The notes under the pieces were generated by a model that ran no database searches, was not told where the DNA came from, and saw nothing but the letters and a program-made list of their open reading frames with translations. Of a DNA stretch of 64,000 bases, positions 1,264-42,833 are shown piece by piece. A program made the translations under genes and the position numbers. Origin of the DNA: a virus; IMG/VR virus record IMGVR_UViG_3300045972_000152, positions 1 to 64,000 of that record; one strand, 5' to 3'. Each line of letters opens with the position of its first letter. The stretch's first letter is position 1.

Positions 1264-1391
1264 AAGTAAAGAACCCTGAGCCGGGGCGTTATTGCCCCGA
1301 TAGTCCACCCGAAGGCAAGCGCGGGATTTGCCCCGTTTGTGGAGTGCCTTACAAACCCCCAGTCAAAGAGGAAGGCGATGGCAAGGAATGA
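1260..1391 (+). CDS. small CPVCG zinc-ribbon-like protein (43 aa)
   Basis: Starts at ATG 1260, overlapping the stop of the previous gene, and ends inside the start of the Rad50-like gene. It has one CPVCG knuckle plus one upstream cysteine, too little for a full zinc ribbon alone, so metal binding would need a partner or dimer. An upstream in-frame start at 1197 is possible, but it lies inside the preceding Cys-rich gene and lacks a binding site. Function unknown. Confidence 0.55.
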   Translation: MKVKNPEPGRYCPDSPPEGKRGICPVCGVPYKPPVKEEGDGKE

Positions 1392-2580
1392 CGGAATAAT
1401 CAGTCGTATAGTTCTTGAAAACATCGAATCCCATAAAAAGACTGTGCTTGACCTCAAACCGGGGGTTAACGCAATCGTGGGATTATCCGATGCTGGAAAG
1501 TCTGCTATCCTCCGGGGTGTCGGACTTGTCTTCACTAATAAGGGCCTTCGCCGCTCTTGGTGGGGCGGGGTATCTGATGTGGAGATTACTTTTACCGATG
1601 GTAATGTTGTTTCCCGGCAGACCGACAAGAAGAACAAGTATTTCCTCCTCAACGACACAGTTGATAACGAGTACGAGGCATTCCGGCACGAAATACCCGA
1701 GGAGGTGCAAGAGGCCCTGAACGTTGACGAAATCAATATCAGCCGACAGATGGACCCTCATTTCCTACTCAGTGACAGCGGGGGTGACGTTGCTAAAGCC
1801 CTGAACCGCGCCTGTAACCTTCAGGTAATTGACACAGCAATCACCAGCATCAAAAGCATGGCCAAAGCCAACTCCTCAGCTATCAAAGAGAAAGAGGACC
1901 ACATGCGAAACTTGGAGGCCAAACGGGACTCCTTTGCGTATCTTGCTGAAATGGAGGTGGAGGTTGAACGATACGAATTACTACTTGCTCAGGAACATGC
2001 GTGCGAAGTGGAGCATTCTTCGTTATCGGCACTCCTTGAGCAAATTCAGGAACAACAAAAGGAACTATCGGAAATCGAATTCGTCCTTGAGTCTGAAAAG
2101 GAAGTCTCAGATATTCAATCTCTACTTGAAGTGCGTATCGGGGTGTCTGAGAAGATTCTGACCCTTCATCGTATTGTGTTGAGAATTCAGCAAGATACGG
2201 AAAAAAGTGGCGAGCATGAATGGGCCTTAGGAGCCGAAACGCAGGTGACCGAAGCCCTTTCCTTGGGTAGGGAACGCGAAGCCCTTACCGCTAGTATTTC
2301 GCAGTTAGATTGTATTTTGCGGAATGTGCGCGGTCATGAGACTGATTCAAAGGCGTGCGTGGCCCTCATTGCTGCCGAACCTGAGATATTTGCCGTACAA
2401 AAGTTGATAAGTGAAAGAGCTGATATCAAAAAAGACGGTCAGGCACTTCAGAACCTTCTTCAGCATATCGCTGACCTTTCTCTCAAGGCCAAAAACTCCG
2501 AACTGAGGATAATGGAAATGGAACAGGAATTCGACCTTGCGTTTCCAGATAACTGCCCGTTGTGCGGAGGTCAACCGTGA
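1378..2580 (+). CDS. Rad50/SbcC-like ATPase, N-terminal half with zinc hook
   Basis: A 400-residue protein with a Walker A loop (GLSDAGKS, about residues 36-43) in the context usual for Rad50/SMC N-lobes. A long Glu/Leu/Lys-rich coiled coil runs from about 160 to 390, and the protein ends at a CPLCG zinc hook six residues before the stop. In normal Rad50/SbcC the chain would return through a second coil to the C-lobe with signature motif and Walker B. Here those parts are a separate gene at 4978-5592. The start at ATG 1378 follows GAGGAAGG; the frame is open further upstream but has no better start. With the Mre11-like nuclease it should form a DNA-end processing complex. Confidence 0.82.
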   Translation: MARNDGIISRIVLENIESHKKTVLDLKPGVNAIVGLSDAGKSAILRGVGLVFTNKGLRRSWWGGVSDVEITFTDGNVVSRQTDKKNKYFLLNDTVDNEYEAFRHEIPEEVQEALNVDEINISRQMDPHFLLSDSGGDVAKALNRACNLQVIDTAITSIKSMAKANSSAIKEKEDHMRNLEAKRDSFAYLAEMEVEVERYELLLAQEHACEVEHSSLSALLEQIQEQQKELSEIEFVLESEKEVSDIQSLLEVRIGVSEKILTLHRIVLRIQQDTEKSGEHEWALGAETQVTEALSLGREREALTASISQLDCILRNVRGHETDSKACVALIAAEPEIFAVQKLISERADIKKDGQALQNLLQHIADLSLKAKNSELRIMEMEQEFDLAFPDNCPLCGGQP

Positions 2581-2717
2581 GAACTAGCGCAGAGCGTCTT
2601 GAAGAATCGCAGAGGTTGATATCTCAATACTTGGTGAAAAGTCATAAGGACAAAGATAGCAATTCTCTATTTGTAGGTTTGGTGAAATTCAACAAGAGGT
2701 GGAAAGACTGCAATTAG
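2577..2717 (+). CDS. short ORF (46 aa), possibly one half of a frameshifted coiled-coil gene
   Basis: GTG 2577 overlaps the stop of the Rad50-like N-half (GTGA), so it would be translationally coupled. The frame gives 46 residues with a charged helical start. In the -1 frame, from 2660 to TGA 2762-2764, lies a strongly heptad-like coil (QQEVERLQLEI, then NELAIRR). Its stop overlaps the GTG of the Mre11-like gene in the same GTGA style. A -1 shift between 2660 and 2714 would fuse both into one coiled-coil protein of about 62 residues. I cannot tell a programmed shift from an indel. Confidence 0.45.
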   Translation: MRTSAERLEESQRLISQYLVKSHKDKDSNSLFVGLVKFNKRWKDCN

Positions 2718-2760
2718 AAATCAAATCCTATGAAAATGAATTAGCAATAAGGAGGGGTTT

Positions 2761-3681
2761 GTGAGAAAAGCTGACGGAATCATCTGTTCCGATATTCACT
2801 TGAGGCTCGACGTGCCTGAGTGTCGCACTGATAACTTCCTTGCGGCTCAGTCTCGTAAGCTTTCCTTTATCTCCGATCTTCAGCAAAAGCACGAATGCCC
2901 TGTGCTATGTGGTGGTGACATTTATCATCATTGGAAGGCGGTACCGCAGTTGTTGGGCATGACGTGCCGTGAGCTTCCCCGGTACTTCATCACAATCCCC
3001 GGCCAGCATGACCTCCCTGCGCACTCCATTGAAAACATCGAACGCGCAGGGATTGACGTGCTGTGTGCAGCTGGTAAGATCATCATGCTTGCCCCTTCTA
3101 CCGAGCTTGACATTCAGATACCGTGCAATTCCCGCAACGAATTCATGTGGGTATCTGGTTTCCCGTGGGGCGAACCCTTGGCAGGTACCCAGTACAGCGG
3201 GATCAACGTGGCTTTGATACATTACCTTGTCTTTCAGGGGCAAGAGCCTTTCCCCGGAGCGGCGCAGGTAGGTGGGACCGGGAAAGCAATCATTCGCCAG
3301 ATGCCCGGTTTCCAGCTTATCGTATCCGGTGATAATCATCAAACTTTCGTGGAGCGGGTAGGCGGGACGGTTCTTGTCAATCCCGGCTCCATGATGAGAC
3401 AAACAGCGGCTCAGGCCGACCATAAGCCCTGTGTATTCCTCTGGTACGCCGACACCAATGAGGTTGAACAGGTTTTTCTTCCTATCGAAAATGACGTGAT
3501 AAGCCGTGAGCACATAGACGTTAAGACAGAGAAGAACGAGCGCCTTGAGGCTTACGTCAAATCACTTGCGACTAATATAACCGTATCACTTTCCTTTGAA
3601 GATAACATGAAAGTGAAGATCGCAGCAAGTGGAGTGCGGACGCCGGTTCAGAAACTTATCTATAAAGCCATGGGGAAATAG
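2761..3681 (+). CDS. Mre11/SbcD-like metallophosphoesterase nuclease
   Basis: A calcineurin-like phosphoesterase of 306 residues. Visible motifs are SDIH (10-13), CGGD (50-53), PGQHD (80-84), a single His in LIHYL near 154, and SGDNH near 190. Together these form the two-metal site. The third motif has Gln where GNHD is usual, and the last has Asp where GHxH is usual. Both variants occur in this broad superfamily, but metal ligation should be checked. GTG 2761 after AAGGAGGGG is the start, overlapping the preceding -1-frame stop. It sits between the two Rad50-like halves, so it is most likely their nuclease partner in recombination or DNA-end processing. Confidence 0.85.
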   Translation: MRKADGIICSDIHLRLDVPECRTDNFLAAQSRKLSFISDLQQKHECPVLCGGDIYHHWKAVPQLLGMTCRELPRYFITIPGQHDLPAHSIENIERAGIDVLCAAGKIIMLAPSTELDIQIPCNSRNEFMWVSGFPWGEPLAGTQYSGINVALIHYLVFQGQEPFPGAAQVGGTGKAIIRQMPGFQLIVSGDNHQTFVERVGGTVLVNPGSMMRQTAAQADHKPCVFLWYADTNEVEQVFLPIENDVISREHIDVKTEKNERLEAYVKSLATNITVSLSFEDNMKVKIAASGVRTPVQKLIYKAMGK

Positions 3682-3682
3682 T

Positions 3683-4408
3683 ATGTACCTTTGGGATGAA
3701 ATCTGGGTATATCATGACGCTTCTGATAGTTGTTGTGTTACCCACCGCTGTGACCTCTTGTGGGGAGAACTTGACGAAATAGGCCCCGCTACTGATAAGA
3801 CCACAATCGAATGCAAACAGCTTCTACTTGCTCAAGGATGGAGTCGAAAGGATATAAAACAAATAACCATAGAACAACCGGAGGCAACAATGGAATTCCC
3901 GCAAGTCTTCGCAACTGATTTTCTCACCCCCTCTAACAAGGTTTATAAAGGCGTAGCTGCGATGATGAATATGGACCCCGGATTTGAGGGGACTCCGTTT
4001 ATCATCACCGCCCCGGACATGAAGACTCTGGAACGTGTTTGGGATATGCTGTCTAAAACTAAACTTGACGTTAGTTGCTGTGCCGATGTTGTTGAGGGCT
4101 TCATCGGTGCTGTGCAATACGTTACCGGATCTTGCGAACCCAGCACCTTGGAGAAACCCCAGACACCAGCCCTGTATGGAGTCGATAGTCTTATCTGGAT
4201 TTATGACGTACAGGAAGATAAGATTTTCGTGGATTTCCGTGGTAGCTATGAAGCTTACAAAAGTTACCGCGAACTTCAGGAAATCGGACCTGCCACCTAC
4301 GTGGCCCCGACCATAGAGTGCAAGCAACTCCTTTTGAAACTTGGATGGAGTCGTGAGGACATTCGGGAAGTAACTATCGTGGAGGGATATGATGAGATAC
4401 CTTTCTAG
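3683..4408 (+). CDS. unrecognised protein with an internal duplication (241 aa)
   Basis: Starts at ATG 3683, two bases after the Mre11-like stop, behind GGGGAAA. Two copies of a module of about 60 residues flank a unique centre. Each copy ends in EIGPAT, TIECKQLLL, GWSR-DI and a VTI/ITI strand (roughly residues 30-65 and 195-235). A strong internal site (GGAGGC) precedes the in-frame ATG 3890, so a shorter protein lacking the first copy could also be made. No family is recognised. It lies between the Rad50 halves, but nothing in the sequence links it to DNA repair. Confidence 0.65.
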   Translation: MYLWDEIWVYHDASDSCCVTHRCDLLWGELDEIGPATDKTTIECKQLLLAQGWSRKDIKQITIEQPEATMEFPQVFATDFLTPSNKVYKGVAAMMNMDPGFEGTPFIITAPDMKTLERVWDMLSKTKLDVSCCADVVEGFIGAVQYVTGSCEPSTLEKPQTPALYGVDSLIWIYDVQEDKIFVDFRGSYEAYKSYRELQEIGPATYVAPTIECKQLLLKLGWSREDIREVTIVEGYDEIPF

Positions 4409-4736
4409 CATCATGAAGTATATTTTTGGCATATTTCTCCTGTACGTGGTAGTATGCTTCTGGACAATGGTATTTGATATCGTGTCAGCCATGCACCACG
4501 CCGAAGCTGTCAGCGGCTGGCTGTTCTTCCTGTCCAACGGCATTTGGTGCTTGTTCTCGCTCTGGTTGATCTTCCGCATGGAAGTGCATATCAAATACAA
4601 GCGGATCATGTGCGAGCGTATTTGGGCACTTGAACGTGAGTTTGCACGGCAGCAGAAAATCATCGAATCCCAGACACTACGGCTTTTCATTTACAAGAAC
4701 ATGATTGACTCATTCCGCTTTCTAAGGAGGAAGTAA
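4389..4736 (+). CDS. small membrane protein with two helices and a basic coil (115 aa)
   Basis: Two hydrophobic segments, about residues 10-33 (IFGIFLLYVVVCFW onwards) and 43-63, are followed by a charged helical tail rich in Arg, Glu and Gln. This predicts an inner-membrane hairpin with a cytoplasmic coil. GTGGAGG lies just upstream; ATG 4389 and 4392 are both possible. It overlaps the previous gene by 20 bases and its TAA overlaps the next ATG (TAATG). Finding it between Rad50-like halves is odd. Function unknown. Confidence 0.65.
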   Translation: MMRYLSSIMKYIFGIFLLYVVVCFWTMVFDIVSAMHHAEAVSGWLFFLSNGIWCLFSLWLIFRMEVHIKYKRIMCERIWALEREFARQQKIIESQTLRLFIYKNMIDSFRFLRRK

Positions 4737-4981
4737 TGCCTACCGATGCAGATATCAAATGGCTCACAGACTTTAAAGCCGAGATTGACCAAGCTAAGAT
4801 CGACAAGGCTGGCATTGATGGCGCTATCAATCAGAATATGGCTCGCCTCAAATCGGAATTCGGGTGCGGGTCCGTAGCTCAGGGCAACAGCAAGCTTCAG
4901 GCCCTCAAGACTAAGAAAGAACAACTTGACGTACAGATAGAGGACTCCGTTGCGGTTCTCAAGGAGAAATACGGGCAATGA
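4736..4981 (+). CDS. small coiled-coil protein (81 aa), candidate missing Rad50 arm
   Basis: Almost entirely helical and charged, with heptad-like spacing of Ala, Leu and Ile. Its TGA overlaps the ATG of the Rad50-like C-half (ATGA). From position and composition I infer that it may supply part of the returning coiled-coil arm that the split Rad50 lacks. It has a single Cys and therefore no second zinc hook. This is inference; it could also be an independent helper. Confidence 0.6.
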   Translation: MPTDADIKWLTDFKAEIDQAKIDKAGIDGAINQNMARLKSEFGCGSVAQGNSKLQALKTKKEQLDVQIEDSVAVLKEKYGQ

Positions 4982-5592
4982 ACTTCAGACAGATATTGGA
5001 ACAGCGCAAGGGTCAGCTTCAGCAGACCGAGGAAATGCTTTCCGCTGTCTATACTGAACTTGACCGACTGGACGCTGAGAAGATTGATATCGAAGAGGCG
5101 CAAACCACCATCATGGAGGTTGCTGAAGAGACACAGAGGGAACTTGAGTTTCATATCAGCGCCCTCGTTTCCATGGCTCTTGCTTCCGTATTCGATGATC
5201 CATACCAGCTTCAAATTGAATTCACCCAGAAGCGCAACCAAACTGAGGCCGAGCTTTCATTTATGCGCGGCAACAATAAAGTAGATGATCCGCTGAACGG
5301 GGCCGGTGGAGGGGCCTGTGACGTTGCAGCTTTCGGTTTGAGAATAGCCATGTGGACGCTAAAAAGACCCCATACGCGCCCGATCATGGTACTAGACGAA
5401 CCTTTCCCTAGACTCAAGGGGGCGCAAGCCAATCTGAGGGCTTTACAAATGGTCAAGCGCATTTCAGATGAACTGGGTATTCAGGTTCTGATGATATCGG
5501 ACGAACGGGTACCTATGGAGGACATAGAAGCGGCGGCAGATAACGTTATCAAAATCGCAATAAAAGGAGGAGTGAGTTATGTCGCACCGTAA
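4978..5592 (+). CDS. Rad50/SbcC-like ATPase, C-terminal half
   Basis: 204 residues starting with a coiled coil (about 1-60). The C-lobe of an ABC/Rad50 ATPase follows: a signature-like GGGACDVAAF near residue 112-121, then Walker B IMVLDEP near 140-146 with a following D-loop region, and the final strand/helix with SDERV. No Walker A is present, so it needs the N-half at 1378-2580 to make an ATP site. Translation is coupled to the coil gene before it (ATGA), and it overlaps the next gene by 14 bases. Confidence 0.82.
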   Translation: MNFRQILEQRKGQLQQTEEMLSAVYTELDRLDAEKIDIEEAQTTIMEVAEETQRELEFHISALVSMALASVFDDPYQLQIEFTQKRNQTEAELSFMRGNNKVDDPLNGAGGGACDVAAFGLRIAMWTLKRPHTRPIMVLDEPFPRLKGAQANLRALQMVKRISDELGIQVLMISDERVPMEDIEAAADNVIKIAIKGGVSYVAP

Positions 5593-22417: not shown

Positions 22418-22449
22418 GGTAATTCTCCTTTTGTTTCTTCGGGGTATAA

Positions 22450-22469
22450 GCCCCGGACAATTCCGGGGC
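22450..22469 (-). terminator. stem-loop between tail tube and tail chaperone genes, possible attenuator
   Basis: A perfect 8-bp GC-rich stem (22450-22457 with 22462-22469) and a 4-base loop, followed on the minus strand by only a short T stretch. It lies about 33 bases before the chaperone ATG. It could partly end or stabilise transcripts so that chaperones are made in smaller amounts than the tail tube. Confidence 0.5.
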
Positions 22470-22608
22470 AATTTGACTACGAAAAATGGTCTAGGTTAGG
22501 CTTTTGGCTACCGGTGTGGTTCTTTCCTTGCGTAAAGAAAAAAGAGGCGGTAAAAGGGCAATTCCCTACGTGCCGGGAAGCCATCAACACTCCGCCCCAC
22601 CCCGACCT

Positions 22609-23793
22609 TTAAACGATTTTGTCGATCTGAAGCGTTGCGCCGCCGAACAGGCCACCGGCAGAACTGGGGTTACCTTCCACGGTGAAAGAAGCCATCACGT
22701 CCTGATTAGGACCACCGGCTACGATCTTGGGATCCATCAGGGTAGCGTTAGCGAGGGTGAAGACGAAACCGGCCCCGTTAACGTCGCAAGCCGAGAAGGA
22801 CAGCATCGACTTGGTTTCGTTCAGGTACTCGGTGTACTGGTTGAAGTCCTTGAAATACAGGTCCACGGAACCATTGACATCCAGAAGACCTTTTCTCATG
22901 CCCTGCGCGGCAGCAGAACCCATCGCCAACTGAGCGGCAGCGGACTGACCCTGCCATTTGAGGTCGATCTTCTGAATCTTGGCGGTAAGTGCGGCAGCAC
23001 CGCGATATACCGCACCGAAACCGGTGGTGGTGTTGAACACGTCACCGGAAGCGGCGACAAGCTGCGCCCCGGTGGAACCATCAGCAGTAACGTTGAGCTG
23101 ATCCTGAGCGAGGAAAGTCAGGTCACCAGAGAAGAAGCCGCCGGTTGCTCCCGATACACCGCCGCTGGTAGGCCACGCGCCCGGATATTGGAGAAACAGG
23201 CTGCTCGACAACATCTTCTGGATGAAGAAGGATTGGAAGACGTTGGCGTTCAGCACTTTCTGGCCGTTGATGGTAATCGGGTCGCCCACAACCTTGGTTG
23301 CCGGGGGAGCCGGAAGTGTGGTGATCTTGCCAGCAACCACGCTGAGAACCTGATACAAACCGTTGATACCACCCGTCCCGGTAAAGCCACGAACCCGGAG
23401 CCACGAACCTGCGGTGACGTTGCCGGTGATGAAACCGTTTCCGCTGTCAGTGAAACCGTCAGCAACGGCTGCGATGGTAGATGCCGCTATGTTAACGGCG
23501 GTCAGCGGGGTACCCATGATGGAAGCCGCCAACATATCGAACGGAGTTGCGTTCGACAAGGAGAACTTCAGGTCACCCTTGGTTTCGACCTTCTGGGTCA
23601 CGGCTGCGGATACCTGACCAGAAGGGTTGATTTCGGACGGACGGCCACGCCCCTTAGTCTGGGTGAAGCCCTCGGAGTCCATCCGCAACTGCTGGAAAGC
23701 AACTGCGGGTTTGACGCCCCATGCTGCTTCGGGCGCGTAGGACATGCTGACATCATTGGACGATATTGCTGCGTTGTAACCGGTACTCGGCAT
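22609..23793 (-). CDS. tail tube (major tail) protein
   Basis: 394 residues, Ala/Gly/Thr/Ser-rich and beta-patterned, starting with an AWGVKPA segment and a long repetitive central domain. It resembles the phage tail tube 2 family by overall layout: N-terminal LRMDSEGFTQ strand, central Ig-like insertion, C-terminal VEGNPSSAGG. It lies immediately upstream of the frameshifted chaperones. A strong AGGAGG site fits high expression. The central insertion of about 100 residues (Gly-rich, around 110-220) could form a surface domain. Confidence 0.75.
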   Translation of the reverse strand: MPSTGYNAAISSNDVSMSYAPEAAWGVKPAVAFQQLRMDSEGFTQTKGRGRPSEINPSGQVSAAVTQKVETKGDLKFSLSNATPFDMLAASIMGTPLTAVNIAASTIAAVADGFTDSGNGFITGNVTAGSWLRVRGFTGTGGINGLYQVLSVVAGKITTLPAPPATKVVGDPITINGQKVLNANVFQSFFIQKMLSSSLFLQYPGAWPTSGGVSGATGGFFSGDLTFLAQDQLNVTADGSTGAQLVAASGDVFNTTTGFGAVYRGAAALTAKIQKIDLKWQGQSAAAQLAMGSAAAQGMRKGLLDVNGSVDLYFKDFNQYTEYLNETKSMLSFSACDVNGAGFVFTLANATLMDPKIVAGGPNQDVMASFTVEGNPSSAGGLFGGATLQIDKIV

Positions 23794-39577: not shown

Positions 39578-40576
39578 ATGAAAGCATCGGATTTGGCAAG
39601 TGTTCTTTCCATCATGGTAGCAGGAAAACGCCCTGTATTGGTTACAGGTGCCCCCGGCATCGGAAAATCGGATTTAGTAGCAAGCGTTGCCGGAAATACC
39701 GGGGCCGATTTGGTAATCATGCATCCGGTTGTTTCGGACCCGACAGATTACAAAGGTTTGCCGGGCATTGTCGATGGTGCGGCGGAATTCCTTCCCTATG
39801 GCGAATTACGTAAAATTCAGCACGCCGACCGCCTGACAATCTGTTTTCTTGACGATATCGGGCAAGCAGCTCCCAGCGTGCAAGCGGCATTAATGCAACT
39901 CCTTTTGGCGCGGGAAATAAACGGCGTCAAGATATCGGACCATGTAACATTCATCGCGGCAACTAATCGCCGTGAGGACCGCGCCGGAGTAGGCGGGATG
40001 CTTGAGCCGGTTAAAAGCCGGTTCACGGGCGGCATCGTCAACCTTGAGGTGGATGTTGAGGATTGGATTAATTGGGCGCTTTCGGCTGATTTGCCGATTG
40101 AGGTAATCGCCTTTGTGAAGTTCAAACCGGCGATGCTCCATGACTTCAAAGCAACGGCCGATTTGATCAACTCTCCTTGCCCCCGCACGGTTGCCGCTGT
40201 AGGAAAGGCGTTTGAGCTGGGAATACCTCAGCAATTGGAGTTCGAAGTTTACAAGGGCATCGCCGGTGAAGGGTTTGCATCGGAGTTTCTTGCTTTCGTA
40301 AAAATCATGAGGCAACTTCCTAACGCCGATGAAATTCTGTTGGACCCCGACAGCGTGCCGATGCCTGAGGACCCCGCCGTTTTGTATGCTCTTTCCGGCT
40401 CACTAGCAAGGAAAGCAAGCGAAACCACGATGGAAAGAATTCTGAAGTTTGCCGACCGGATGCCGCCGGAATTTCAGGTCCTTTTGATCCGGGACGCTGT
40501 GAAACGCGACAGAAAATGCACGCACACAAAAGCCTATATCCAATGGGCACAGAAAAACGCTAGCGTACTCATTTAA
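39578..40576 (+). CDS. MoxR-type AAA+ ATPase
   Basis: 332 residues with Walker A GAPGIGKS (24-31), Walker B CFLDDIGQ near 88-95, an ATNRRED sensor segment near 128, and MoxR-like arrangement (VSDPTDYKGLPG, PVKSRF). In bacteria and phages MoxR ATPases act as chaperones with a VWA-domain partner, which here is the third gene of the same unit (41619). A DUF3150-like gene lies between them, as in other phage versions. AAAGGAG site. Confidence 0.85.
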   Translation: MKASDLASVLSIMVAGKRPVLVTGAPGIGKSDLVASVAGNTGADLVIMHPVVSDPTDYKGLPGIVDGAAEFLPYGELRKIQHADRLTICFLDDIGQAAPSVQAALMQLLLAREINGVKISDHVTFIAATNRREDRAGVGGMLEPVKSRFTGGIVNLEVDVEDWINWALSADLPIEVIAFVKFKPAMLHDFKATADLINSPCPRTVAAVGKAFELGIPQQLEFEVYKGIAGEGFASEFLAFVKIMRQLPNADEILLDPDSVPMPEDPAVLYALSGSLARKASETTMERILKFADRMPPEFQVLLIRDAVKRDRKCTHTKAYIQWAQKNASVLI

Positions 40577-40583
40577 CGGTGCA

Positions 40584-40613
40584 GGGGTGTTATGCTGGGA
40601 AAGGTAACACCCC
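40584..40613 (+). repeat. intergenic stem-loop with 9-bp stem
   Basis: GGGGTGTTA pairs with TAACACCCC between the MoxR and DUF3150-like genes. Different sequence from the GGCGGGTTTAA family but in an equivalent place. Confidence 0.6.
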
Positions 40614-40662
40614 GCCCTTTCAACCTACTACAACCGAAATTTAGAGCATACAGGGGGATAAA

Positions 40663-41532
40663 ATGACACCGGTAACCAATGGCGTGAGCCTTACAGAAAA
40701 AGCAATGCTTGTCTCCCTTTCCATTTCATCATGGCAGGGTCGGAAACTTGATAAAACCGCAACCAAAAAGGTACAGGTTGACAATGGGGCCGCCGATGGT
40801 ACGGGGCGATACCACAAAAACACCGTAGCTAAGGAGGCACTAAAGGATATCGCGGCAACCATCGGGGCCGCTCGGACGTTCCACTATGCCAATACCCTGC
40901 CATGGAACGATTTAGGCCAGCGCATTTTACCATCTGCAAACTTCCTGCCCTATACTGAGGAAATGCGGAAACTTAAAACCAACTTCGAAAACGCCGTGAT
41001 GAAGTTTGTTGCGGATTACCCGCAGCACGTACAAGAGGCACGCGCCTTGCTGGGAACGATGTATAATTCTGAAGACTACCCGCAGCAAGGCCAAATCGCG
41101 GGGCGTTTCGCTTTCGAATTCTACGTTGACCCGATACCTAACGCTGGTGACTTTCGGGTTACCCTTCAGTCGGATGAAGTGAACACCATACAGGCACAAA
41201 TCACAGCAAGGGTAGAAGCGGCACAAACCGCCGCTATCGGTGACCTTTGGGACCGCCTGAAAGAGGTACTGGGAAAGGTTGAGGAAAGGCTATCAGACCC
41301 GGAGGCTATCTTTAGGGATAGCCTGATAGATAACATGGTAGAGCTAACGGAGCTTGTACCGCGCCTGAACTTTACCAATGACCGGAAACTTTCGCGTACC
41401 GTTTCCATGATAGAAGATCGGATCAACACCCTTGACCCCTCAACCCTGAGAAACAACCTAGTTGAGAGGAAAGCGGCTGCAAAGGACGCTAAAGCTATTC
41501 TCGATATCATGGCCGGTTATTGCGGCAACTAG
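40663..41532 (+). CDS. DUF3150-like protein
   Basis: 289 residues with the family features: LTEKAMLVSLSISSWQGRKLDKTAT at the start, YHKNTVAKEALKDI, then a helical C-terminal half with VEERLSDPEAIFRDSLIDN. The biochemical role of DUF3150 is unknown, but it recurs between MoxR and VWA-type genes in phages, so it is probably part of that complex or its substrate. AGGGGG site. Confidence 0.75.
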   Translation: MTPVTNGVSLTEKAMLVSLSISSWQGRKLDKTATKKVQVDNGAADGTGRYHKNTVAKEALKDIAATIGAARTFHYANTLPWNDLGQRILPSANFLPYTEEMRKLKTNFENAVMKFVADYPQHVQEARALLGTMYNSEDYPQQGQIAGRFAFEFYVDPIPNAGDFRVTLQSDEVNTIQAQITARVEAAQTAAIGDLWDRLKEVLGKVEERLSDPEAIFRDSLIDNMVELTELVPRLNFTNDRKLSRTVSMIEDRINTLDPSTLRNNLVERKAAAKDAKAILDIMAGYCGN

Positions 41533-41538
41533 GGCAGC

Positions 41539-41580
41539 TTATAGGCGGGTTTAAGGTGACAGATTAAACCCCCTGTATAA
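41539..41580 (+). repeat. intergenic stem-loop, family copy 3
   Basis: TTATAGGCGGGTTTAA pairs with TTAAACCCCCTGTATAA; loop GGTGACAGA shared exactly with copy 1. Confidence 0.7.
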
Positions 41581-41618
41581 CCTTTCCTAACGTCAACCCC
41601 AACAAAGGAGCTAAAACC

Positions 41619-42833
41619 ATGGATACCACGGCACGTCAAACAATCGTTAAGGCAAGGGCGGCATTGATCCTTGACCATCCATTTTTTGGGGCGCTTGCCT
41701 TGCGCCTGTTGCTCAAAGAGGACACTGGATGCAAAACATCATGGGTTGACGGTGTAACCCTTGGTTATAATCCGGTTTATATCAATTCCCTTCCCATGGA
41801 TGAAGTAAAGGCGCTTGTCTGCCATGAGGTGTTACACCTTGCGCTTGCCCATCATACCCGCCGCAATGATCGGGATTTTGATGAATGGAACGAGGCGTGC
41901 GATTTCCCCACCAATCAAACCGTTCATGATGTGGGTATGCCGATTGGTAAGGGTTGGCTTTTCGACCCGCTCTATAAGGATTTAAACTCTGAAACCATCT
42001 ATGACAAACGGCACCGGGAAAAACAACAGGGCGGCGGCAATGGTCCCGGTAATCAGCCGGGACAACCGCAACCGGGACAACCGCAACCGGGACAACCGCA
42101 ACCGGGACAGGGGAAAGGGCAAGGCACCCCGCAACCGGTACCGGGAGAAGTTAGGGATTTACCGGGAACGGATGGACAACCGGCAACCCAGACCCAGAAA
42201 GATATATCAGCGCAGGATTGGCAAGTTGCCGCAACTCAGGCGGCGCAACAGGCTAAAGCTTGTGGCAGGCTTCCGGGAAATATTGAGGAGCTTATCGAAA
42301 AGCTGAATGAGCCTAAAGTTAACTGGAAAGAGGCGTTACAGCGGTTTGTTGAGCAACAGGCTAAAAATGATTACAGCTTCCGTCGTATCAACCCCCGCTT
42401 TGCCGGTCGCGGGGTGTGCCTCCCCTCTCTGCACTCTGAAGAGTTGCCCCCCATCCGGGTTGCGATTGATACCAGCGCATCGGTTAGCAAGGAGGAGTTG
42501 GAGCAATTCGCAAGTGAGATTGACGATATATTGTTTCACTATCCCACTACCGTAGAAACCATCTATTGCGATACGAGGGTTAACGGCACCGAAACCTTTA
42601 GCCGGGAGAATCGCCCTGTAAAGCTTAATGTAAAAGGCCGGGGCGGCACCCGCTTTAGTCCTGCATTTGAGCATGTGGAAAAGCTGGGAGAGGAAACCAC
42701 CTGCTTGATATACCTATCTGATATGGACTGTGATGATTTCGGTCCCGCTCCTGATTATCCGGTACTGTGGGTACAGACGATGGGAAAAGCTAAAAAGGTT
42801 CCTTTCGGTGAACTTATCAGGATGAACAAATAA
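41619..42833 (+). CDS. metallopeptidase-like/VWA protein (DUF2201 type), MoxR partner
   Basis: 404 residues. The N-terminal domain has HEVLHLALAHH (69-78), an HExxH zinc motif with a third His. A Gln/Pro/Gly repeat linker (four copies of PGQPQ, 15-bp DNA repeats near 42050-42110) leads to a C-terminal VWA-like domain with a DTSAS MIDAS motif near 283 and SDMDCDD later. This is the DUF2201_N plus DUF2201 arrangement. With the MoxR ATPase it forms a likely ATPase/metal-binding pair whose target is unknown. AAAGGAG site. Confidence 0.82.
   Translation: MDTTARQTIVKARAALILDHPFFGALALRLLLKEDTGCKTSWVDGVTLGYNPVYINSLPMDEVKALVCHEVLHLALAHHTRRNDRDFDEWNEACDFPTNQTVHDVGMPIGKGWLFDPLYKDLNSETIYDKRHREKQQGGGNGPGNQPGQPQPGQPQPGQPQPGQGKGQGTPQPVPGEVRDLPGTDGQPATQTQKDISAQDWQVAATQAAQQAKACGRLPGNIEELIEKLNEPKVNWKEALQRFVEQQAKNDYSFRRINPRFAGRGVCLPSLHSEELPPIRVAIDTSASVSKEELEQFASEIDDILFHYPTTVETIYCDTRVNGTETFSRENRPVKLNVKGRGGTRFSPAFEHVEKLGEETTCLIYLSDMDCDDFGPAPDYPVLWVQTMGKAKKVPFGELIRMNK

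What the first reader, a model, noticed from the sequence alone, without database searches (positions are those of the whole stretch)
1378..5592. Rad50/SbcC split into two genes around its Mre11 nuclease
Walker A, coil and terminal zinc hook are one gene (1378-2580). The signature motif and Walker B C-lobe are another (4978-5592), 2.4 kb away, with the Mre11-like gene and a membrane protein between. In known Rad50/SbcC both lobes are one chain joined at the hook. Here the break falls exactly after the hook, and an 81-residue coil gene (4736) may serve as part of the returning arm. This implies a two- or three-chain Rad50.
Basis: partly seen in the sequence, partly recalled or inferred. Interest (0 to 1): 0.7.

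Follow-up and report, generated by a model that had tools for sequence, protein, structure and literature searches.

The report
Phage Rad50 encoded as separate halves
This phage and about 120 related virus loci encode Rad50, the DNA-break-processing ATPase that is one long protein elsewhere, as two separate proteins cut just after the zinc hook, next to its Mre11 nuclease and a small coiled-coil protein; this is an old, unnamed variant of the machine and not a damaged gene.

Summary
Window 1378-2580 is a Rad50 N-lobe, N-arm and CPLC motif, ending 4 residues after the motif. Window 4978-5592 is a Rad50 C-lobe. Profiles of each family find Rad50 first among solved structures (N-terminal and C-terminal parts respectively).

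120 distinct viral or prophage loci share this; 94 carry all four genes, 89 in the order N-half, Mre11, small coil (about 80 aa), C-half. In 100 of 102 complete N-halves a CxxC lies within the last 29 residues. All 29 N-half loci with enough downstream sequence carry a C-half; none is fused. Eight fused controls carry the hook at 46-52% of the chain. The genes are under purifying selection, and split proteins fall on one side of an N-lobe tree.

New: the N-arm is built from a 47-residue repeat absent from fused controls, and its length comes in steps of about 47-50 that neither small coil nor C-half follows, so the returning arm is missing or replaced.

Not tested: assembly, zinc, ATPase or nuclease activity. 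Two structure predictions disagree on whether the N-arm folds back. A 2011 paper noted a Bacillus phage Mre11/Rad50 fusion lacking one ATPase segment; this family may explain it.

The parts
1378..2580 (+). Rad50 N-half: N-lobe with Walker A (GLSDAGKS), arm with four 47-residue units, C-terminal CPLC hook motif
2761..3681 (+). Mre11/SbcD-like nuclease (D.H, GD, GQHD, H, GDNH)
4736..4981 (+). S: small coiled-coil protein, 81 aa, helix / EFGC loop / helix by sequence; a counterpart precedes the C-half at most loci
4978..5592 (+). Rad50 C-half: short coil, signature motif (GAGGGACD) and Walker B (VLDEP)
3677..4408 (+). uncharacterised ORF between Mre11 and S with an internal repeat; shorter relative at the same place in L005 and L006; not part of the cassette elsewhere
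4389..4736 (+). predicted membrane protein, overlaps the S start; not a conserved part of the cassette

Best explanation
The two genes encode the two halves of one Rad50. N-half and C-half meet without a covalent link to rebuild a complete ABC ATPase head (Walker A from one chain, signature and Walker B from the other), as in the crystallised two-chain archaeal Rad50 heads. Two such heads dimerise on ATP over a Mre11-like dimer and process DNA ends for the phage's recombination and replication, as T4 gp46/gp47 do. The CxxC at the end of each N-half joins two N-arms through a shared zinc. The C-half brings only a short coil; the small S protein, often translationally coupled to it, most likely packs on this coil and replaces part of the missing returning arm (this last step about 0.6). 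Shown here: identity of the parts by sequence, conservation of the cassette, selection, one origin on the tree, and the repeated arm. Inferred: assembly, zinc binding, ATPase and nuclease activity, the place of S, and the biological role.
For: C-half family profile: best solved matches are Rad50 C-terminal chains (3qkr_B 2e-16, 1ii8_B). N-half profile: Rad50 first (3aux 8.5e-21, then 3qkr_A, 1ii8_A); the AlphaFold model of the window N-half finds 1ii8_A, 9a9j_A and 1f2u_A first by fold. Mre11 profile finds Mre11 structures (6.7e-15). For Bacillus phage vB_BboS-125 the N-half aligns to 5-433 and the C-half to 804-893 of an 895-position Rad50 model. 94 of 120 loci carry all four genes, 89 as N-M-S-C. 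29/29 N-found loci carry C and M; 7 of 8 N-halves missing near a C-half were found elsewhere on the contig, and the 6 read to their ends all end in CPxC. Fused controls have the N-lobe match at the start of the chain and, where the C profile matches clearly, the C-lobe match at its end; hook at 46-52% where a CxxC is present. dN/dS 0.03-0.17 for L151/L152. N and C distances correlate (Mantel r 0.56; 0.35 after removing M). The N-half is the only AAA_23 lobe in this record.
Against: No complex was predicted or measured. The C-half has about 208 aa in all, whereas fused Rad50s carry about as much sequence after the hook as before it, so most of the returning arm has no clear counterpart. AlphaFold breaks the window's N-arm at 272-282 but not that of L118, so the position of the hook relative to the head is not settled. 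The window C-half has Asp at the H-switch position and no D-loop Asp, so its ATP hydrolysis may be altered. Correlated distances are expected for any co-inherited genes.
Confidence: 0.85

Rival explanations
1. Fold-back arm: the N-half contains both strands of the coiled coil. Its arm rises, turns, and returns, so the terminal CxxC lies near the head, and the chain break is at the base of the arm and not at its tip. The C-half then only adds the C-lobe, and N-arm length is free to vary.
For: AlphaFold model of the window N-half: helices 187-271 and 283-388 with a low-confidence break at 272-282. N-arm length does not correlate with S or C length, as expected if the N-arm pairs with itself.
Against: L118 N-half is predicted as one continuous helix 190-343. 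The strongest predicted breaks do not cluster at mid-arm. In fused phage Rad50s the hook lies at residue 288-367, about where the shortest N-halves end, so the motif looks like the ordinary tip hook.
Confidence: 0.25
2. The C-half is not the partner of the N-half but a small independent ABC-type protein, and the N-half works with another C-lobe, for example the host's SbcC.
For: C-half relatives also match RecN and SMC models weakly; in some phages N and C genes lie tens of kb apart.
Against: 29/29 co-occurrence; N and C co-vary more closely than N and M; best solved match is Rad50 chain B; a host SbcC C-lobe is already part of one chain with its own N-lobe.
Confidence: 0.08
3. Broken gene, frameshift or assembly artefact of an ordinary SbcC.
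For: Single-contig metagenome source; a possible frameshift exists in relatives L003 (S/C junction) and L005 (N-half).
Against: Same split in 120 distinct loci including isolated phages vB_BboS-125 and Magritte and prophages of named Bacillales; low dN/dS; split proteins on one side of the tree.
Confidence: 0.01
4. The halves are joined after translation by a split intein or other trans-splicing.
For: None found.
Against: N-halves end 6-29 residues from the first Cys of the motif, leaving no room for an intein half; C-halves start directly with coil.
Confidence: 0.01

Closest known systems
T4 gp46/gp47 and phage SbcC/SbcD-like complexes (PHROG 77 and 100)
   Same: Rad50-type ATPase plus Mre11 nuclease among replication and recombination genes
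   Different: gp46 is one 560-aa chain with its hook at residue 288; no S protein known to me; fused control arms show no 47-residue repeat
E. coli SbcCD, archaeal and eukaryotic Mre11-Rad50
   Same: Both lobes, CxxC motif and nuclease partner by profile
   Different: One chain with two matching arms; here two chains with most of the return arm missing, and an Mre11 that often has GQHD and GDxH in place of GNHD and GHxH
Mre11/Rad50 fusion A7KV18 of Bacillus phage 0305phi8-36 (PMC3175470)
   Same: Second-best fold match to the window N-half in the viral library; [quoted passage not shown] L143 here is an Mre11::N-half fusion with a separate C-half
   Different: The quoted passages do not report a separate second half; its record was not in the collections, so its C-half could not be checked
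PHROG 16465 ('exonuclease') and PHROG 15167 ('ATPase')
   Same: Database families that match the window N-half and, for 15167, all 87 C-halves scanned
   Different: Listed separately and not described as two halves of one Rad50
P. furiosus Rad50 catalytic domain structures (1f2t, 1ii8, 3qkr)
   Same: The head in these entries consists of two separate chains, A and B, among the best matches to N-half and C-half
   Different: A laboratory construct; here the two-chain state is the natural one
SMC coiled-coil arms with preferred lengths (PMC5344682)
   Same: Arm lengths come in discrete steps
   Different: Steps of about 100 residues there and a single chain; about 47-50 here, with a visible sequence repeat

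Membership tests
Rad50/SbcC | N-lobe with Walker A | tested here: met
   104 of 106 N-halves; profile to Rad50 8.5e-21
Rad50/SbcC | C-lobe with ABC signature and Walker B | tested here: met
   Walker B in 108 of 112, GGG signature in 85 of 112 by a strict pattern; Rad50 chain B 2e-16
Rad50/SbcC | CxxC zinc-hook motif | tested here: met
   100 of 102 complete N-halves; both Cys invariant in an alignment of 97
Rad50/SbcC | Both lobes and both arms in one chain, hook in the middle | tested here: not met
   N and C are separate genes throughout the family, hook at the C-terminus; fused controls do meet it
Rad50/SbcC | Partner Mre11/SbcD nuclease encoded nearby | tested here: met
   29 of 29 N-half loci; profile to Mre11 6.7e-15
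Rad50/SbcC | Antiparallel two-stranded coiled-coil arm | tested here: inconclusive
   Return arm short or missing; predictions disagree
Rad50/SbcC | Zinc-mediated dimerisation and ATP-dependent nuclease activity | not testable with these tools
   Needs purified proteins
Mre11/SbcD | Metal-binding motif set of calcineurin-like nucleases | tested here: met
   D11, H13, D53, H83, H154, H193 invariant in 51 rows; G[NQS]HD in 103 of 104; the GHxH motif reads GDxH in 79 of 104

The most novel reading that the evidence does not exclude
A modular Rad50 of at least three chains whose single-chain N-arm is a ruler of 47-residue units, covered by S hairpins in place of the returning arm, with the zinc clasp at a free chain end; arm length then evolves by adding units without changing any partner.
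Probability: 0.2. Interest if true: 0.88.

Novelty: new variant of a known kind. Interest (0 to 1): 0.74.

Why it matters
Rad50 and SMC machines are thought to depend on two antiparallel strands of one chain joined at a hook or hinge. A natural, conserved clade in which the chain ends at the hook and the return strand is largely gone would make testable what the two-stranded arm and the covalent hook are for, and would supply small two-chain Rad50s for structural work. The 47-residue arm unit gives a natural length series. It also explains why many phages seem to carry an incomplete Rad50, and would correct the present labels 'exonuclease' and 'ATPase'.

Tried and rejected
Single-protein pattern scans of viral contigs with the window N-half (no relative) and C-half (one relative) were too narrow; alignment-based scans worked. 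Alignments of 12 C-halves or 7 N-halves were too diverse to scan with. L014, L016 and L017 were dropped as ordinary ABC transporters that hit the C profile weakly. I first thought the N-arm a hairpin from the window model; the L118 model and the scatter of predicted breaks did not support this as a rule. A simple period test on arm lengths peaked broadly at 50-57; the repeat itself was established by lag analysis at 47 with a heptad-preserving shuffle. The record of phage 0305phi8-36 was not in the collections, nor was the T5 accession tried as a further control. S gave no convincing solved relative (only generic coiled coils, best E 0.002). Literature searches for a split Rad50 or SbcC found no report, but subscription papers and most preprints are not held.

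Full report
Observation. The window is part of a 65,133-base virus record. Its right part carries a phage replication set: primase, DnaC-like loader, DnaB-like helicase, sliding clamp and DNA polymerase, and a DNA ligase lies just left of the finding. ORF 1378-2580 has a Rad50-type N-lobe (PF13476, 2.7e-11), a long helical arm and the sequence CPLCGGQP at its very end. ORF 4978-5592 matches PHROG 15167 'ATPase' (6.2e-13) and has signature and Walker B motifs. ORF 2761-3681 is a calcineurin-like nuclease.

Relatives. The first relative found, Bacillus phage vB_BboS-125, has the same parts: an N-half ending CPLC...(471 aa, annotated 'exonuclease'), a 78-aa coil, a C-half (211 aa, 'ATPase') and an unannotated Mre11-like ORF. 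L003 has N-half, Mre11, a short coil and C-half in a row. Scans of viral contigs with C-half and N-half alignments and of bacterial genomes (Sutcliffiella, two Paenibacillus, Brevibacillus) gave about 135 further loci. After removing near-copies there are 120 distinct loci: 94 carry all four genes, 89 in the order N-M-S-C and 5 as N-S-C-M, all on one strand.

The break. Of 102 complete N-halves, 100 have a CxxC within the last 40 residues (6-29 from the end, median 12; 94 of the 100 read CP.C), and the two exceptions have altered Cys motifs. Both Cys are invariant in an alignment of 97. In eight fused controls with a CxxC, including T4 gp46 and E. coli SbcC, the motif lies at 46-52% of the chain, with the N-lobe match at the start and, where the C profile matches clearly, the C-lobe match at the end of the same ORF. 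Among 46 distinct loci found by the N-lobe alone none is fused to a C-lobe; the one long ORF, L143, is Mre11 fused to an N-half.

Are the two halves partners? Of 29 distinct N-found loci with at least 6.3 kb downstream, 29 have a C-half and Mre11, and 28 have S. Of 59 C-found loci with at least 6.3 kb upstream, 51 have an N-half nearby; for seven of the other eight plus L008 (8 records) a search of the whole contig found an N-half elsewhere in 7, and the six read to their ends all end in CPxC. In Microbacterium phage Magritte the halves are gene 155 and gene 2, the N-half there lacking the hook. Distances of N and C correlate (Mantel r 0.56), more than those of N and Mre11 once each is corrected for the third (0.35 against 0.11). 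All parts are under purifying selection, for example dN/dS of about 0.12 (N), 0.10 (M), 0.17 (S) and 0.03 (C) between L151 and L152.

What the parts are. Profiles against solved structures: C-half best to Rad50 C-terminal chains (3qkr_B 2e-16), N-half best to Rad50 (3aux 8.5e-21), Mre11-like best to Mre11 (3auz 6.7e-15). The fold of the window N-half model finds Rad50 chain A first. For phage 125, N aligns to 5-433 and C to 804-893 of an 895-position Rad50 model: what is missing from both is the stretch after the hook, the returning arm. That the archaeal head structures are built of two chains (entries with chains A and B) shows that the head can assemble from two pieces. The N-lobe tree puts split and fused proteins on two sides with one change (SH-aLRT 88), so one old split is the simplest reading; L013 is a long branch and the fused sample is small.

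The arm. N-arm lengths fall into classes of about 135, 182, 232 and 295 residues (16, 55, 15 and 5 loci). Sequence self-comparison at fixed lag, against a shuffle that keeps heptad columns, peaks at 47 residues (pooled Z 26.6 over 91 arms; 5.9 in the window alone); the arms of fused controls show none (0.6). The window and L006 have four clear 47-residue units. Related arms are not independent, so the pooled Z overstates the significance, but the single-arm values and the control stand. Neither S (84 +/- 9 aa) nor the C-half varies with N-arm length (Spearman -0.01 and 0.07). In the shortest class N (about 300 aa), S and C add up to about the size of a whole phage Rad50, but longer N-arms have no matching return strand. 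AlphaFold gave a broken arm for the window (pLDDT 88, pTM 0.46) and an unbroken one for L118 (pLDDT 89.5, pTM 0.49); the tool reports no interhelix geometry, so I leave fold-back as a rival.

The small protein S. A relative of the 81-aa coil lies before the C-half at nearly all loci. In 50 of 101 S-C pairs an in-frame C start overlaps the S stop by 1-20 nt, and in 12 more it starts within 20 nt after it. Its sequence suggests two helices around a conserved loop (EFGC in the window). It has no convincing solved relative. Its role as a return-arm substitute is inference.

How it most likely works. Two-chain heads with Walker A in trans to signature and Walker B, a Mre11-like dimer below, N-arms clasped by zinc at their ends, S on the C-half coil; function in DNA-end processing during phage recombination and replication, by analogy with gp46/gp47 (annotation quoted). 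The Mre11-like proteins keep the metal ligands but often replace GNHD by GQHD and GHxH by GDxH, so their chemistry may differ.

Known or new. I found no report of a split Rad50 or SbcC in the open library. The nearest precedent is a 2011 paper (PMC3175470) that lists an Mre11/Rad50 fusion of Bacillus phage 0305phi8-36 (A7KV18) and remarks that one P-loop segment was not observed. A7KV18 is the second-best viral fold match of the window N-half, so it is probably the L143 layout. A survey of jumbo phages (PMC7824862) calls SbcC practically universal and describes split polymerases; the passages seen do not mention a split SbcC. I therefore call this a new variant of a known kind: by parts it is Rad50, but it fails the one-chain criterion.

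Noticed in passing
L093:704-2791: Mre11-like ORF of 695 aa with an intein-like insert placed inside the GNHD metal motif (GNHD-MCVSDDTEA ... VLWTGN-SHD).
   Followed up: no
L143:434-2776: Natural fusion of the Mre11-like protein to the N-half (780 aa) with a separate C-half downstream at 3814-4482, and no S found.
   Followed up: partly
window 3677-4408: 243-aa ORF with an internal repeat (EIGPAT...TIECKQLLL..GWSR.DI), shorter relatives at the same place in L005 and L006; no known family.
   Followed up: no
window 4978-5592: H-switch position reads Asp (SDERVP) and the D-loop reads RLKG; by a rough pattern most family members have His at the switch (75 H, 5 D).
   Followed up: partly
L003:4525-5135: S and C-half appear joined by a frameshift at a run of five A; sequencing error or a natural S-C fusion, not decided.
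   Followed up: no
NC_048735.1 about 22423-23403 (L001:9247-10227): The Mre11-like gene of Bacillus phage vB_BboS-125 is missing from the record's annotation.
   Followed up: partly
window 39578-42833: MoxR-type ATPase (39578-40576) and, after a 289-aa ORF, a VWA-like metallopeptidase-type protein (41619-42833; PHROG labels its family HNH endonuclease) encoded close together.
   Followed up: no
L028 and L038 N-halves: The two complete N-halves without a regular CxxC end instead in CPIFSVPCC and CPIHKCVC.
   Followed up: no
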